This document shows, in pieces, positions 7,310 through 14,039 of a DNA stretch of 44,893 nucleotides (positions are counted from its first letter, which is position 1; each line of letters opens with the position of its first letter). Made by a program: the position numbers and the translations under genes. The notes below the pieces were generated by a model, which had not been told where the DNA came from, searched no databases, and was given only the letters and a program-made list of their open reading frames with translations. Source of the DNA: an uncultured Gammaproteobacteria bacterium (GTDB lineage Bacteria; Pseudomonadota; Gammaproteobacteria; CAKMZV01); NCBI GenBank assembly GCA_929200535.1, contig CAKMZV010000019.1:1-44893 (forward strand). Direction: 5' to 3'.

Positions 7310-8053
7310 ATGGCTTATTTAGAGGAAATAACAAGCTCTTATCAGAACGTCTGCAACAATAGTAGTTTAGCCCCCCAACAAATAAAAAAATCTCTGCAAT
7401 ATGAAAATTGGATAAATGCAAGCGATGAAATAACACGTCAAATCACTAAACACAAAAATTACTCAAAAATTAATGCCAATATATTATTTCCATTGGAAAA
7501 TGCCTCGCTTAATAGCATAACCTTTCCACCTGAAATAAAAAAAACGATAAAGCAGTGCTATCATTTATGTCGAATCAGAATAGCCGCTAAAGAGTACGAC
7601 ATAGGAGATTTACATTCTGATGACTTACTTGAATTCTACCAAGAATCTATTAATAAGAGAAAACCTTTAATTGGAATATGGGTTTTTGTAGAGCAACAAT
7701 GCTTAGAAAGTGGCAATGATTTGTTTAATCTAATCAACTTATTGGGCTTATATCACTGGTATGAGCTATCTTTTGAAACTCTGTACGTAATGTGGAAAAT
7801 CGATAATCTAAAATGTCGCAAACCAAATATATTGGATGCTGGATTAGCTTTTTATTTCCAACAACAACCTAAAGGGGAAACTGGAAAGACTCGCAATTTA
7901 ACAACAGGGGAACTTGGTATTGAAGAATGGATTTCTGTAGAAAATCCAACCAATCCCACTCCCACAAAAGCAATAGCCTTACAGGCAAAACAACAATTAA
8001 ACAAAGACATTTTTTTTAAAACCAATGCAAAAAGAATCCAAAAAACAAAGTAA
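7310..8053 (+). CDS. Protein of unknown function, gene 1 of the methyltransferase/ATPase cassette
   Basis: I do not recognise this 247-residue protein. It is soluble, with no signal peptide or membrane span, and looks mixed helical. The N-terminal 80 residues (EITSSYQNVCNNSSLAPQQI onward) are polar. A helical middle contains CYHLCRIRIAAKEYDIGDLH and WVFVEQQCLESGNDLFNLIN. The C-terminal 60 residues are rich in Thr, Pro and Lys (QPKGETGKTRNLTTGELGIE) and could be flexible. No ATP-binding, nuclease or helix-turn-helix motif is visible. It is the first gene of a five-gene plus-strand run, and its last 29 bases overlap the start of gene 2, which points to coupled translation. An effector-adaptor or sensor role would be a guess. 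Confidence 0.75.
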   Translation: MAYLEEITSSYQNVCNNSSLAPQQIKKSLQYENWINASDEITRQITKHKNYSKINANILFPLENASLNSITFPPEIKKTIKQCYHLCRIRIAAKEYDIGDLHSDDLLEFYQESINKRKPLIGIWVFVEQQCLESGNDLFNLINLLGLYHWYELSFETLYVMWKIDNLKCRKPNILDAGLAFYFQQQPKGETGKTRNLTTGELGIEEWISVENPTNPTPTKAIALQAKQQLNKDIFFKTNAKRIQKTK

Positions 8054-9065
8054 TGATAAGCTGAGTGTGGAAAATATTATACACACGCACTTTAACGAGC
8101 AGAAACAAGCTGACAAATACGTGCTAAATCGCTTGCAACACCAATTTGATAAGGCACCACCTACTTTGGTTCACCGACATATGGAGCAATATGCAACTGA
8201 TATTCTTGAACAAATTTCAGTTAAAATAGAAGATAAAAAAAGAATTAGTATTGCTTGCTTGGAGGCTTTGAAAAAGCTATCAAAACCACAAAAATCGTAT
8301 TCCCTGAAAAATTTAATCGCCCTATCAGAGTTATCTTATTTTGTCTTGCAGCTTGCTAAAAATAACCCTAATGCCTATTTCAATGCAGAGCAAAAAAAAG
8401 AATGGGCGAAAGAACTATCCAACCTAAATTTGGAAGAAGAGACAATTTCAACTAATAAGGATAAAAACAATCGCCTCAAAAACCTTATAGAAGTCGTATA
8501 TATTTTTGAAATTCTATTATCAGTTAAATTGTCATTTAACTGGGATAACTTACGTAACAAAATTTGCGAATTTCACGAAAATGCTGACGAATATATCCTT
8601 GAATTGCTATTTATGGCTTGCCAATATACGACTAATTGGAACCAAGAAAGTATGTCGATTTTATTGGAATGGTCAACAGAACAGAAGAAGCTACCCAATA
8701 ATTTTTATGAGCAATTTTTTCTAAATTATTTACTAAAGTGCAAACGAGAAACATCAGAAGCCAATAAAACAAAACAAAATGATTTTATTACCCATATTTT
8801 AACAAGCAGCCGTTTTTTTAACACATTAGACAAGCAGAAAAAAACAATTTTATGCGAATCATTGTTAAAGGCGAGCCGACTATTTGAATCAAAAAGTTTT
8901 AAAATTTTAAACGATGAGAGAATAAAATATCTCGAAAACACATTAGAAAAATGGAAAAAATCCACACAAGAAAAAGTACACATAGAAACTAGCGAAACTA
9001 ATAACGACTTAATGCAGAAAACCTACAGTAAATTCTCACCATCAACAACGTCTGCTGTCACTTAA
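8025..9065 (+). CDS. Helical protein of unknown function, gene 2 of the cassette
   Basis: A 346-residue soluble protein that appears almost entirely alpha-helical, with many Lys, Asn, Glu and Leu residues and heptad-like stretches (for example LEACLEAL-type spacing near residues 70-110 and LENTLEKWKKSTQEKVHIET near the C-terminus). No catalytic motif is recognised. It starts inside gene 1 (29-base overlap, ATG at 8025), and the ATPase gene begins 12 bases after its stop. The repeated helical texture could form a scaffold, as in HEAT-like or TPR-like proteins, but I cannot identify a repeat unit. The C-terminal 30 residues are Ser/Thr-rich and probably disordered. Confidence 0.75.
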   Translation: MQKESKKQSNDKLSVENIIHTHFNEQKQADKYVLNRLQHQFDKAPPTLVHRHMEQYATDILEQISVKIEDKKRISIACLEALKKLSKPQKSYSLKNLIALSELSYFVLQLAKNNPNAYFNAEQKKEWAKELSNLNLEEETISTNKDKNNRLKNLIEVVYIFEILLSVKLSFNWDNLRNKICEFHENADEYILELLFMACQYTTNWNQESMSILLEWSTEQKKLPNNFYEQFFLNYLLKCKRETSEANKTKQNDFITHILTSSRFFNTLDKQKKTILCESLLKASRLFESKSFKILNDERIKYLENTLEKWKKSTQEKVHIETSETNNDLMQKTYSKFSPSTTSAVT

Positions 9066-9077
9066 AACTCTTAAAAT

Positions 9078-11918
9078 ATGCCTTCCCTAAATACCCAATT
9101 CATTTGCTTTTACTCTTATAAAGGTGGTGTCGGACGTAGTACAGCACTCACCAATTTGGCAATATTGCATGCCCGCCAAGGGAAGAAAGTGCTAATTATT
9201 GATTTAGATTTAGAGGCGCCGGGGCAATCACAAAGCGGATTATTTAATGCTCAATACATACAAGAGGCAAAAACACTAAAGGGTGGCTTTACCGATTTAT
9301 GCCTTGAATGGCAAAAAAGTTTTAAGGAAAACAAGGCCGCTTTAGCTTGGCAACTAAAAGATTATACAGTGCGTAGCACAGAGCTTGATGATCGAACTTT
9401 CGAAGGCGTTGGGGATATTTACTTACTACCAGCAACTAAACAGCTTGATAATCAGTACGCTCAAACATTACATCAACTCAACTGGGATGATTTTTTTGGT
9501 GATTCCATCAAAGGTTATTTGTTAATGGCAGACATCCGCACCTATTGCGAACTTGAGGAATATGATAGTGTATTTATTGACTCGCGCACAGGCTTAAGTG
9601 ACCCCTACTATATGGCAACTTCTTGGCTAACTGATAGCACAGTATGTTTCACCTTATTAAATGAACAAAGCATCGCTGGCTGCAAAGGGGCAATGAATGC
9701 GATTAATTCACCTTCCTTTATTAAAGGTTATGGCAAAAAGCATATTGTGCCAGTGGCTTGTATGCTCCCTCCCTCACTGGGAGAAAGCGTCCAAAAAAGA
9801 ATAAATGAAATTAAGGATAAGGAATGGTTAGAGCTAAACGAACAGGGCTTTGCCTCAACTATTTTATACGATGAAACAATGGCATTAAGAGCAACTTTGC
9901 CATTACTTAATGCAGATAATAATATGAGCCTTAATATCAATTCCTACACGCAATCCATCATACAAATAGATGAAGCTTTGGATAAAAAAGACACAGACTA
10001 CTTATTAACGAAACAACGAGTAAAACAAAGCTACAAAGGAGAATTAGAAAACCCTTTTCCTAATTTACGCATTGAATACTGCAATGCTAAAGAAGTTGAA
10101 AAATATTACTCTAACTTATACCCAAGCATTCGAGAACAGCTTCTTGCTTTTCCACCAATCATTATTTTTGGTTCTCGTGGTACTGGCAAAACCACCCTTG
10201 CTCGACATCTGGACTATGAAACTCAATTAGTACAATTTGCTAAAGAAAACCCAAATCAAGAACCTATACCTGAGCATTTCCCTCAAGTGGTGCTATGGAT
10301 ACGACAAGATAGCGATCTTTTAGCTGCATTTAATACCCCAGATGCATATAAGCAAGTTATCTATAACCAGCTATTTAGTGCCTTTTTAGATTTAATGGTG
10401 TTGCGAAAAATGTTGGAAGCAATGGATAAAATTGAGGGCATACAAGCCTGGGTGAATTCTACCACTAAACTCTTTAAAATCCTTAGCAGAGAAATGGGGA
10501 GAAAAGAGGGCGAGCCATTAAATAATCTTGAACAATTCAGTAACTATTTAGACGAATATTTGTCTGACATTCGCGGCTATATAAATAATCCAAATGATAG
10601 CAATAAGCCCTATATGTTTTTAAGCAACACTCTACTTAAGCTATTAACTGAGCAATTTAAACCGGAAATTCAATCTTATTTTGTGGTAATTTTAGATGAA
10701 GTTGAAAACTACGCCAGCTACCAACAACGCACTCTAAACACTCGAGTTAAGCATATTAAGCGTAGTAACTTAGTCACTTATAAATTATTAGCACGCAATG
10801 AGGGAATTAAAACATCAAAAACCGATGCAACAGGTCAATTATTAGAAGTTACTCACGACTATAAGGCTTATTTTTTAGATGAGGCGATGAACTTTCAAGA
10901 ATTTCATGATCAAGTAAATACATTTATACACCACAGCCTACAACAATCGCCGAGTTTCTCACATTTTGGAGAAGCCAAAACTTTTTTAAATGCTCTGACA
11001 CCACAAGAAGAAGCACAAGAAATGTTTGAAACAAGAAGGCAAACAACACACCCCCCCCCCTTAGTCTCTTATGTTAAAAAAGAGCTAAAACTTCCCTCAG
11101 AACATCCTTTTTTACAATGGCTTGACCAAGAGCAAAACATATTGCGTCAGGCAGTAGCAGTAATCCTTCTCAATCAAGGAAAGGAAATTGAACAAGTGCT
11201 TAATGAGTTTAGCAAAAATAGTTCAAAGGCTAAAGACTGGTATCATAATTATTCCACAGGAGCATTATTTTGGTTATGCCGATTGTACAACAAAAATAAA
11301 ATATATGCAGGTATCAATGATTTGGTAGGAGTTTCCGGCAATAATATTCGTGTCGTGGTACTCATATTAGGGCAGCTGTTTCAAGAGTGGATTGAAAATA
11401 AAGATACAGGTACCTTATTTTTTTCAGTCAAACAGCAAAATAAAGTCATACACGAACAATCACAAACACAAGTCAAACTACTCGATCGCTTTAAATTTAC
11501 TGACAATCGATTAGACCGCTTTGTAGCTCGCTTAGGGACTCTATTTAGGGCACTCCATAAGAGTCCTAAACAAAGTGAGCCAGAGATTAACCATTTTTCA
11601 ATTCAAGGGGATGTGGATGAAAAAATAGATAAGTATTTACGCCTATGCCGACAAGAAAATATACTACAATGGATGCCCAGTAACAAACAAAAAAATAGTA
11701 GTGATTATGTACCCGATGCTTATCGCTTTAATCCTGTATATGCTCCTGATTTTGATATTTCTTGGCGGCGTAAGAAAAAATTAATTCTAACGTCTAAACA
11801 AATTGAAATACTTTGTTTTGGGCAGGATAATGAGTGGAAAACTATACATAAAAATATAGTAAAAAAACACGACTCTTCAAATATTCCATCAGTTGATCAA
11901 CAACCTACTTTACTGTAA
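9078..11918 (+). CDS. Fusion of a KGGVGR-type ParA-like ATPase with an RGTGKT AAA ATPase, gene 3 of the cassette
   Basis: This 946-residue protein joins two P-loop modules. Residues 1 to about 300 resemble ParA/MinD ATPases: FYSYKGGVGRSTALTNLA (K15 signature lysine, but R20 where the usual Walker lysine stands), then IIDLDLEAPGQS (D42, D44) and VFIDSRTGLSDPYY near residue 168. From about 325 a second module starts with NAKEVEKYY and has Walker A GSRGTGKT (365-372) and Walker B VVILDEVENY (D540, E541), resembling ORC/Cdc6-like or STAND-like bacterial ATPases. The C-terminal 280 residues include helical stretches of the winged-helix style, but no named domain. A run of ten C at 11051-11060 lies in codons 658-661. 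The family is one I associate with bacterial conflict genes; that role here is inferred from the neighbouring methyltransferase. Confidence 0.85.
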   Translation: MPSLNTQFICFYSYKGGVGRSTALTNLAILHARQGKKVLIIDLDLEAPGQSQSGLFNAQYIQEAKTLKGGFTDLCLEWQKSFKENKAALAWQLKDYTVRSTELDDRTFEGVGDIYLLPATKQLDNQYAQTLHQLNWDDFFGDSIKGYLLMADIRTYCELEEYDSVFIDSRTGLSDPYYMATSWLTDSTVCFTLLNEQSIAGCKGAMNAINSPSFIKGYGKKHIVPVACMLPPSLGESVQKRINEIKDKEWLELNEQGFASTILYDETMALRATLPLLNADNNMSLNINSYTQSIIQIDEALDKKDTDYLLTKQRVKQSYKGELENPFPNLRIEYCNAKEVEKYYSNLYPSIREQLLAFPPIIIFGSRGTGKTTLARHLDYETQLVQFAKENPNQEPIPEHFPQVVLWIRQDSDLLAAFNTPDAYKQVIYNQLFSAFLDLMVLRKMLEAMDKIEGIQAWVNSTTKLFKILSREMGRKEGEPLNNLEQFSNYLDEYLSDIRGYINNPNDSNKPYMFLSNTLLKLLTEQFKPEIQSYFVVILDEVENYASYQQRTLNTRVKHIKRSNLVTYKLLARNEGIKTSKTDATGQLLEVTHDYKAYFLDEAMNFQEFHDQVNTFIHHSLQQSPSFSHFGEAKTFLNALTPQEEAQEMFETRRQTTHPPPLVSYVKKELKLPSEHPFLQWLDQEQNILRQAVAVILLNQGKEIEQVLNEFSKNSSKAKDWYHNYSTGALFWLCRLYNKNKIYAGINDLVGVSGNNIRVVVLILGQLFQEWIENKDTGTLFFSVKQQNKVIHEQSQTQVKLLDRFKFTDNRLDRFVARLGTLFRALHKSPKQSEPEINHFSIQGDVDEKIDKYLRLCRQENILQWMPSNKQKNSSDYVPDAYRFNPVYAPDFDISWRRKKKLILTSKQIEILCFGQDNEWKTIHKNIVKKHDSSNIPSVDQQPTLL
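11051..11060 (+). repeat. Ten-base poly-C tract within the cassette ATPase gene
   Basis: Ten consecutive C bases encode part of His658 and Pro659-661. In this AT-rich window no other C or G run that I see exceeds about six. Loss of one C would bring a TAG stop directly after the prolines (about residue 662). Gain of one C would bring a TAA stop about five codons further on. Both slips would remove the last 280 residues, as expected of a phase-variable switch. Confidence 0.8.
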
Positions 11919-11919
11919 A

Positions 11920-12858
11920 ATGCAGACTATTACTGAGTATAGCCCCACAGCAGAAAAACATAGAAAATTAGCAAACTTGCATCCGTGGGATATTTTATTG
12001 ACTGGTGATAATAATGAATATAGGTGTACGCATACAATTAAACAATTGAAACAACATATGCAGCCTTTTCAGTATATACAACTTAGCCGAGAAAAAAATC
12101 AAGGCGGTAATGGGCAGTTTATACTTAAGTCGATAGATTGTCCGAATAAATACGAAGAAAAATGCTCTGCTCAACTGCTTAATTTAAAATTAACTACATT
12201 AATCGAAAACTGTTCTCAAAAATCAACAAATATTCATATTCTTATGGATATTACTAGCTTAGAATTAGATGCTATTTTACATATCCAACATATTTGCCAA
12301 CAAGAAAAATATCGATTATTTGCCTTATACACCTCGCCTGCAAAATATAAGGAACGAAAAAAATTCAAACTTCAATTAAACACAATTGCACAACCTCCGG
12401 GTTACACAAGTTTAACCGTAAATAGCACCTCCCCTATTCCTCATATTATTATTTTAGGTTTCGATTCTGGCAGAGCTGAACGCTTTTTGACACAGTATCC
12501 TCAGTGGCAATTTGAAGATATATTTGCTATTTATAGTAGCCCAGCCTACATTAAAGATGGGGAGAGAATGGCACTAAATGCTAACTCTTGGATAGATAGT
12601 ATTCCTGAAAAACAACGACTATCAATTGACGGTCTTAACCCTTCAGGCGTGTACCAACAATTACAAAAAATTTATACCGAAAAAAAGAGGATGGATATAG
12701 TCCCTTTAGGACCTAAATTAATGCTACTTGGTATTACAGAATTTTATTTTTCATTGCCCAAAAATGAACAAAAAAATATACGTATTTTATATGATTTCCC
12801 ACAGCCAACACCAGGTAGCACAACAGGAATCAAAAAACATTATTTATTAGAATGTTAA
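11920..12858 (+). CDS. Two-lobed protein of unknown function, gene 4 of the cassette
   Basis: About 312 residues from the ATG at 11920, one base after the stop of the ATPase gene; an upstream TTG at 11893 would overlap that gene and is less likely. I recognise no family. The protein contains two similar segments: YRLFALYTSPAKYKERKKF (F134) and DIFAIYSSPAYIKDGERMA (F202), each at the end of a hydrophobic strand. The region before the first is ILMDITSLELDAILHIQHIC and before the second PHIIILGFDSGRAERFLTQY. This alternation of short hydrophobic strands and helices suggests a duplicated Rossmann-like fold. Near the end, MDIVPLGPKLMLLGITEFYF could be another strand and helix. A ligand- or nucleotide-sensing role is possible but not shown. 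The end overlaps the methyltransferase start by seven bases. Confidence 0.75.
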   Translation: MQTITEYSPTAEKHRKLANLHPWDILLTGDNNEYRCTHTIKQLKQHMQPFQYIQLSREKNQGGNGQFILKSIDCPNKYEEKCSAQLLNLKLTTLIENCSQKSTNIHILMDITSLELDAILHIQHICQQEKYRLFALYTSPAKYKERKKFKLQLNTIAQPPGYTSLTVNSTSPIPHIIILGFDSGRAERFLTQYPQWQFEDIFAIYSSPAYIKDGERMALNANSWIDSIPEKQRLSIDGLNPSGVYQQLQKIYTEKKRMDIVPLGPKLMLLGITEFYFSLPKNEQKNIRILYDFPQPTPGSTTGIKKHYLLEC

Positions 12859-14039
12859 ATAACTTAGCACAACATTACACACACCATATCCACGCTGATT
12901 TATTAGTCAAGCAAATGGGACGCTATGTTGAACATACAAAATTGCTATCTGGCATTGATTTAGGCGCAGGAAAGGGCGTACTACTTGATGCCGCACTAAA
13001 AAAGTGGGAACAGATTAAATTTTCAGGGATTGATGTGGATTTAGACAAAAACAATCATTCTGATGCCAACAGAGTGGCTTTTTTTTCTGCGGATTTATTG
13101 ACCGATAAATCAGTCGATTTTTTAGAACATCAAAAACTTATTGATTGTTGTGATATTGCTGTTTGCAACCCTCCTTTTCAGAGCTTTCAAAACAATCAAC
13201 TATTCCGTAACTTATGCAAAATTAATAAATTTGAGGCTTGTTATAATATGCCTGTTGTAACCACAGATATTATTTTTCTATTACATAATTTACGTTTATT
13301 AAAGCCAGGTGGCTTATTAGGCATTATCCTACCTGATGGAATTTTAACAGGAAAACGCTTTCAAATACTACGCAAAAGCTTGTTGGAGACACACAACATT
13401 AAAGAAATAATTCAACTGCCAGATAAAGCCTTTTCGAGAATTGAAGTTAGAACTCATATGATTATTTTGCAAAAAAGCGTCTTGCAATCAAATAAGATTG
13501 AATTAAGGCAAGTAAATAATGAGGGGAAACTCAGCAAAAAACTAACGATTAATGATGTTCAATTAGAAAAACGAATGGATTATTCCTATTGGAAATGGCA
13601 ACTACAACAGCAGATAAAAAAAAACACCATAAAATTATCAGACTTAAATGTTGAAGTATTGCGTGGCAGTCAAACAAAATATTTTTTTGAACAACAAAAC
13701 ACACCTTATTTTCATACACAACATTTACCAACATCGCCTAAAAAAATAAGTTTCTCAATCTCCAAAGCATCAAATGTCAGAAAAGCGAAAAAGGGAGATA
13801 TTTTAATGGCACGAGTAGGTAAACGTTGCTTAGGGCGTATGACATTGGTTTGCAATGGGTCAGTTCCTATTACAGATTGTATTTACCGTATTCGAGTTCC
13901 TCAAAAACATTTAAATATTATTTGGAAATCACTCTCTTCAAGATTAGGTCAAGAATGGCTCAAAGCAAATGGACATGGCTCTTGTGCTCAAGTAATCAGC
14001 AAGAGTGATTTAATGGATTTTCCGATTCAAGGTTTTTAG
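12852..14039 (+). CDS. Adenine-type DNA methyltransferase with a single target-recognition-like domain, gene 5 of the cassette
   Basis: A 395-residue protein. The N-terminal 230 residues are an HsdM-like N6-adenine methyltransferase: SAM motif GIDLGAGKGVLLDAA (34-48), acidic SGIDVDLDKN, catalytic NPPF (106-109), and LRLLKPGGLLGIILPDGIL. From about residue 250 the sequence resembles one target-recognition half of a type I specificity subunit: VEVLRGSQTKY, then KKGDILMARVGKRCLGRMTL, PITDCIYRIRVP, and HGSCAQVISKSDLMDFPI. Methyltransferase and recognition module are therefore in one chain, but it is shorter than type IIG enzymes and has no nuclease motif. No restriction subunit is adjacent. It probably marks host DNA so that the ATPase-containing partner proteins can tell self from foreign; the second half of that sentence is inference. 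Confidence 0.85.
   Translation: MLNNLAQHYTHHIHADLLVKQMGRYVEHTKLLSGIDLGAGKGVLLDAALKKWEQIKFSGIDVDLDKNNHSDANRVAFFSADLLTDKSVDFLEHQKLIDCCDIAVCNPPFQSFQNNQLFRNLCKINKFEACYNMPVVTTDIIFLLHNLRLLKPGGLLGIILPDGILTGKRFQILRKSLLETHNIKEIIQLPDKAFSRIEVRTHMIILQKSVLQSNKIELRQVNNEGKLSKKLTINDVQLEKRMDYSYWKWQLQQQIKKNTIKLSDLNVEVLRGSQTKYFFEQQNTPYFHTQHLPTSPKKISFSISKASNVRKAKKGDILMARVGKRCLGRMTLVCNGSVPITDCIYRIRVPQKHLNIIWKSLSSRLGQEWLKANGHGSCAQVISKSDLMDFPIQGF

What the first reader, a model, noticed from the sequence alone, without database searches (positions are those of the whole stretch)
11051..11060. Poly-C tract could switch the cassette ATPase on and off
A run of ten C lies in codons 658-661 of the 946-codon ATPase gene. 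I worked out both slips: minus one gives TAG directly after the prolines, plus one gives TAA about five codons later. Either would cut off the last 280 residues and could reduce translation of the coupled genes 4 and 5. Long C or G tracts in frames are the classic basis of phase-variable restriction systems in Neisseria, Haemophilus and Campylobacter. Nothing else in this window approaches this tract length.
Basis: partly seen in the sequence, partly recalled or inferred. Interest (0 to 1): 0.8.

Follow-up and report, generated by a model that had tools for sequence, protein, structure and literature searches.

The report
Slippery C-tract in defence-cassette ATPase gene
A run of ten Cs in the ATPase gene of a probable phage-defence cassette is really there and could switch that gene off by slippage, but nothing yet shows that it varies, and a run this long can arise by chance in this genome.

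Summary
C10 lies at 11051-11060, in frame, 69% along the 946-aa ATPase, and is the only C or G run of 7 or more in the window. C9 stops after residue 661 and C11 after 666. The tract encodes H-PPP in a loop between two helices of an ORC/Cdc6-like AAA+ domain. Homologs share neither the prolines nor the tract.

The cassette is a divergent form of a widespread four-gene locus (PRTase-CE, ORC/CDC6-like ATPase, CARF6, N6-methyltransferase). Here the PRTase is missing, two orphan genes precede the ATPase, and the ATPase carries an N-terminal KGGVGR domain seen in none of about 73 homologs.

For switching: the genome has C19 and C27 tracts in the leader of a probable lipoprotein family. Against: synonymous-codon resampling predicts about 0.7 coding C/G runs of 10 or more per genome, and two exist, the other being in thioredoxin reductase. 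MutS and MutL are present. No reads or sister strains were available.

Verdict: a physically switchable locus and a plausible contingency gene, with selection for switching undecided (about 0.45). "Restriction system" is not shown; it is a candidate defence cassette.

The parts
11051..11060 (+). C10 tract, in frame, encodes the end of His658 plus Pro659-661
   Evidence: predicted loop 654-660 between helices 642-653 and 661-670
9078..11918 (+). ATPase, 946 aa: KGGVGR ParA-like N-terminus (about 6-208) fused to an ORC-CDC6-like AAA+ domain (325-903)
   Evidence: PF24389, 3.2e-79; NF047398, 1.1e-37
11920..12858 (+). CARF6-like triple-CARF protein; likely start ATG 11920, one base after the ATPase stop (the listed TTG start at 11893 is less likely)
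   Evidence: (PDLC01920, 3.5e-18)
12852..14039 (+). N6-adenine DNA methyltransferase with a probable target-recognition part; overlaps the CARF6 gene by 7 bases
   Evidence: PDLC03285, 4.5e-72; PF02384, 1e-16
7310..8053 (+). orphan orf1, 247 aa, at the cassette start where relatives have a PRTase
   Evidence: model uninformative
8025..9065 (+). orphan orf2, 346 aa, overlaps orf1; directly upstream of the ATPase

Best explanation
The tract is a genuine, slippage-prone C10 in a tolerant inter-helix loop of the AAA+ ATPase of a CARF6/methyltransferase candidate defence cassette. Loss or gain of one C stops translation at residue 661 or 666, removing the C-terminal helices and winged-helix region and interrupting the ribosome flow into the tightly coupled CARF6 and methyltransferase genes. 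It most likely acts as a low-rate, reversible ON/OFF switch (contingency locus) for the cassette. Shown: the tract, its frame, both stops, the non-conserved loop, the coupling geometry, and longer poly-C tracts in another gene family of this genome. Inferred: that cells actually vary at the tract, that truncation is null, that downstream expression falls, and that switching is selected.
For: Exact C10 and immediate stops in both off-frames. Prolines 659-661 are not conserved among 49 homologs and residues 655-657 are absent from most, so protein function does not require the tract. The predicted loop has the lowest confidence (block mean 62) in the neighbouring region. Seven of 21 invariant columns (G745, R758, Q787, G820, E836, F840, K870) lie downstream, so truncation is probably null. 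The CARF6 ATG is one base after the ATPase stop and the methyltransferase overlaps CARF6. The same genome has C19 and C27 tracts where another family member encodes the N-terminus of a probable lipoprotein leader. Given T-H-P-P-P-L, the chance that codon usage spells C10 is 0.002. Precedent: C. jejuni cj0031, a type IIG R-M gene, varies through a G9 tract at base 2573 of 3732 (69% along), and the tract is missing from its homologs (PMC4889913).
Against: Resampling expects about 0.7 coding C/G runs of 10 or more per genome, so one or two are near chance. The other in-frame 10-mer, G10 in a thioredoxin-reductase-like gene, encodes what is known to be a conserved GGG motif (own knowledge), so long tracts here need not be switches. 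MutS and MutL are present. In a meningococcal reporter with MMR intact, G10 switched at a median of only 1.2e-7 (PMC4085013). No homolog keeps the tract. No read or strain data.
Confidence: 0.45

Rival explanations
1. Chance tract: three CCC proline codons after CAC arose by drift in an unconstrained loop. It raises the frameshift rate a little, but no switching is selected.
For: About 0.7 such coding runs expected per genome against 2 seen; G10 in a thioredoxin-reductase-like gene; non-conserved loop; MMR genes present; in-ORF C/G runs of 8 or more are fewer than expected, so no general excess (5 seen, about 11 expected).
Against: Codon chance for this peptide is 0.002; longer poly-C tracts in a leader family suggest that this genome uses them.
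Confidence: 0.42
2. The C10 length is an assembly or sequencing error.
For: Draft of 50 contigs; two very long C tracts lie at contig ends.
Against: An error of one or two bases would break the frame, yet the ORF is intact over 946 codons and conserved after the tract; the contig is not broken here.
Confidence: 0.06
3. The tract causes programmed ribosomal or transcriptional slippage, giving full-length and truncated ATPase from one DNA sequence.
For: Stops lie directly after the tract in both other frames.
Against: No homolog has a comparable tract at this place and no stimulatory element was sought; poly-C is not the usual slippery sequence (own knowledge).
Confidence: 0.05

Closest known systems
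Phase-variable type IIG R-M gene cj0031 of Campylobacter jejuni (G9/G10)
   Same: C/G homopolymer 69% along a long defence-type gene, off-frames split the gene, and the tract is absent from homologs.
   Different: Switching is measured there, not here; cj0031 is a fused nuclease-methyltransferase, whereas this is an AAA+ ATPase in a genome with MutS and MutL.
PRTase-CE (PF24390) / ORC-CDC6-like (PF24389) / CARF6 / N6-methyltransferase locus
   Same: ATPase, CARF6 and methyltransferase, with ATPase and CARF6 adjacent as in the relatives.
   Different: No PRTase; two orphan genes instead; N-terminal KGGVGR domain on the ATPase; C10 tract.
PADLOC candidate PDC-M28 (KGGVGR ATPase M28B next to AAA protein M28C)
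   Same: KGGVGR ATPase coupled to an AAA protein.
   Different: Fused here; the M28C protein tested does not match Pfam PF24389; CARF6 and methyltransferase added.

Membership tests
Homopolymer contingency (phase-variable) gene | Long mononucleotide tract in the reading frame whose one-unit changes truncate the protein | tested here: met
Homopolymer contingency (phase-variable) gene | Tract length varies among cells or strains | not testable with these tools
   No reads; the organism's order holds one genome
Homopolymer contingency (phase-variable) gene | Tract longer or more frequent than chance predicts | tested here: inconclusive
   0.017 per window, about 0.7 per genome, 2 seen
Homopolymer contingency (phase-variable) gene | Genome carries other such tracts in variable surface genes | tested here: inconclusive
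   C19 and C27 in a leader family, but at contig ends
PRTase-CE/ORC-CDC6/CARF6/MTase locus | ORC-CDC6-like ATPase (PF24389) next to CARF6 | tested here: met
PRTase-CE/ORC-CDC6/CARF6/MTase locus | N6-adenine methyltransferase in the locus | tested here: met
PRTase-CE/ORC-CDC6/CARF6/MTase locus | PRTase-CE gene in the locus | tested here: not met
   orf1 and orf2 match no Pfam or PADLOC family; a PRTase is found in 71 of 73 ATPase loci
Restriction-modification system | Methyltransferase present | tested here: met
Restriction-modification system | Cognate restriction nuclease present | tested here: inconclusive
   No nuclease recognised; orf1 and orf2 are orphans

The most novel reading that the evidence does not exclude
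A whole CARF6-type signalling defence cassette, rather than only a methyltransferase or specificity gene, is phase-variable through its ring ATPase, so that a population keeps both immune and non-immune cells.
Probability: 0.35. Interest if true: 0.65.

Novelty: new variant of a known kind. Interest (0 to 1): 0.42.

Why it matters
If the tract varies, bacteria would be hedging the cost of a complex, CARF-containing immune cassette by stochastic switching, as is known for restriction systems. Independently, the locus is an unusual form of a widespread but little-described gene set and shows its core (ATPase, CARF6, methyltransferase) separated from its usual first gene.

Tried and rejected
1) Finding sister strains: the family and order hold only this genome; direct protein scans of genome and viral contigs found nothing. 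2) Tract conserved in the family: rejected. In 344 kb of system genes only two C/G runs of 8 or more occur, neither at this place. 3) Curvibacter MAG locus L137 has its ATPase split into two frames at a C8 tract, but about 100 residues upstream, and its four closest relatives have no tract there; a mutation or a consensus error, so illustration only. 4) Mismatch-repair loss as an explanation: rejected, MutS and MutL found. 5) Homologs and fold of orf1, homologs of orf2: none useful; the orf1 model has pLDDT 34; the one weak orf2 match lies in a frame with five stops. 6) Published description of the four-gene set: none found in the open library; the CARF classification paper and a likely Burroughs and Aravind paper are not held.

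Full report
What is there. The window is a whole 44,893-base contig of a 1.97-Mb draft genome in 50 contigs. A C10 tract occupies 11051-11060, flanked by ACA and TTA. It is the only C or G run of 7 or more in the window. ORF 9078-11918 reads through it: CAC CCC CCC CCC TTA gives H658 P659 P660 P661 L662. Mechanical substitution of other lengths shows stops after residue 661 (C9) and 666 (C11); of lengths 6 to 14 the frame is open only for C7, C10 and C13.

Is it more than chance? C is 19% of the window. Resampling synonymous codons of 38 window genes gives 0.017 C/G runs of 10 or more per window, or about 0.7 in an assumed 1.75 Mb of coding DNA. A whole-genome pattern search, read with the sequence around each tract, gives 14 C/G tracts of 8 or more: five in ORFs (C8 in an ORF with DTPQ repeats, G10 in a thioredoxin-reductase-like gene, C8 in an APPP-type linker, C8 in an Fn3-type lipoprotein, and the window's C10), six in two families of dispersed repeats, one intergenic, and two very long ones, C19 and C27. 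The window tract is thus rare locally but expected about once per genome. The thioredoxin-reductase G10 encodes the GGG of VVGGGNTAVEEA, a conserved motif by general knowledge, and shows that a 10-mer in this genome need not be a switch.

Does this genome use poly-C switching? The C19 and C27 tracts follow the near-identical stretch ATGCGTATAT...TTTTCTAAAATCA. A related copy continues from this leader into an N-terminus with a probable lipoprotein signal (...LLVACGG). Contigs C16 and C21 end at or just after these tracts, and contigs C27 and C30 end within the same leader. Start-proximal poly-C in a multicopy surface-protein family is a classic arrangement, so the genome probably has real contingency loci. 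Caveat: tracts at contig ends can be assembly artefacts. MutS and MutL are both encoded, which argues for modest rates. In Neisseria meningitidis with repair intact, a G10 reporter switched at a median of 1.2e-7, compared with 6.5e-10 for G7 (PMC4085013).

The protein and the place of the tract. The ATPase has a KGGVGR ParA-like N-terminus (NF047398, 1.1e-37) and an ORC-CDC6-like domain at 325-903 (PF24389, 3.2e-79). An AlphaFold model built with 49 homologs is confident over most of 330-930; the N-terminal 320 residues are not, because homologs lack them. It puts residues 654-660 in a coil between helices 642-653 and 661-670, with block confidence 62 against 85-90 around it. The model's weak fold matches are ORC/Cdc6 and CED-4 type AAA+ proteins. 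In 49 homologs the prolines are not conserved and residues 655-657 are mostly absent. Seven of 21 invariant columns lie beyond the tract, so truncation at 661 probably destroys function.

Downstream coupling. The ATPase stop TAA (11916-11918) is followed after one base by ATG (11920), the likely start of the CARF6 gene. The TTG start at 11893 in the ORF list is a mechanical choice. CARF6 and the methyltransferase overlap by 7 bases. Premature termination about 850 bases upstream would plausibly lower both; this is inference.

What the cassette is. Homologs of the ATPase were collected from plasmids, phage records, genomes and viral contigs. Of 78 loci examined, 73 carry the ATPase and 64 hold all four of a PRTase (PADLOC PRTase_III-A, Pfam PRTase-CE PF24390), the ORC-CDC6-like ATPase, CARF6 and an N6-methyltransferase. 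At least one contig is counted twice (L068 and L079). Sources include Proteobacteria, Bacteroidota, Planctomycetota and Bacillota. Two further loci have a calcineurin-like phosphoesterase and a D12 methyltransferase instead. None of the 73 has the KGGVGR domain on or beside the ATPase. The window cassette lacks the PRTase and begins with two overlapping orphan genes with no useful relatives. It is therefore a variant of this gene set, not a standard member. KGGVGR ATPases paired with another AAA protein are known to PADLOC as candidate system PDC-M28. No nuclease was recognised, so 'restriction' is unproven, and the defence role is inferred from family labels.

Signs of switching elsewhere in the family. 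One MAG locus (L137, Curvibacter) has its ATPase split into two frames exactly at a C8 tract, at a different loop; its four closest relatives have no tract there. It shows that such genes can break at poly-C, or that MAG consensus can err there. It does not show regulated switching.

Judgement. The physical requirements for a switch are met and the setting is suggestive; variation is not shown and chance is a serious rival. The closest functional parallel is cj0031 of C. jejuni, whose G9 tract sits at the same relative position (69%) of a long gene, is absent from homologs, and switches measurably (PMC4889913). I put selected or functionally relevant switching at 0.45 and a chance tract at 0.42.

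Noticed in passing
L051 5014-5032 and L053 5044-5070 (contigs C16 and C21 of the same genome): C19 and C27 tracts just downstream of a conserved ATGCGTATAT leader found in about nine places; a related copy leads into a probable lipoprotein signal peptide, and several contigs break there. Probable phase-variable surface-protein family.
   Followed up: partly
L078-L149 and L068, L075-L077: Conserved four-gene locus PRTase-CE / ORC-CDC6-like ATPase / CARF6 / N6-methyltransferase in 64 of 78 loci; also on Klebsiella and Moraxella plasmids and in an Acinetobacter record filed as a phage.
   Followed up: partly
L144 5715-10786 and L147 5658-10796: Variant with a calcineurin-like phosphoesterase in place of the PRTase and a D12 methyltransferase, around the same kind of ATPase and CARF6.
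   Followed up: partly
L046 5055-5064: In-frame G10 in a thioredoxin-reductase-like gene, encoding the GGG of VVGGGNTAVEEA; a useful internal control for slippage.
   Followed up: partly
L137 2402-2409: ATPase gene of a Curvibacter MAG split into two frames at a C8 tract.
   Followed up: partly
window 7310-9065: Two overlapping orphan genes (247 and 346 aa) with no detectable relatives, in the place of the PRTase.
   Followed up: partly
L047, L049, L056, L057; L050, L055: Two dispersed repeat families (CCCTCTCCCTGAGGGAGAGGG and GTGCCACGAAGTGGC) ending in G8-G10 tracts of differing length.
   Followed up: no
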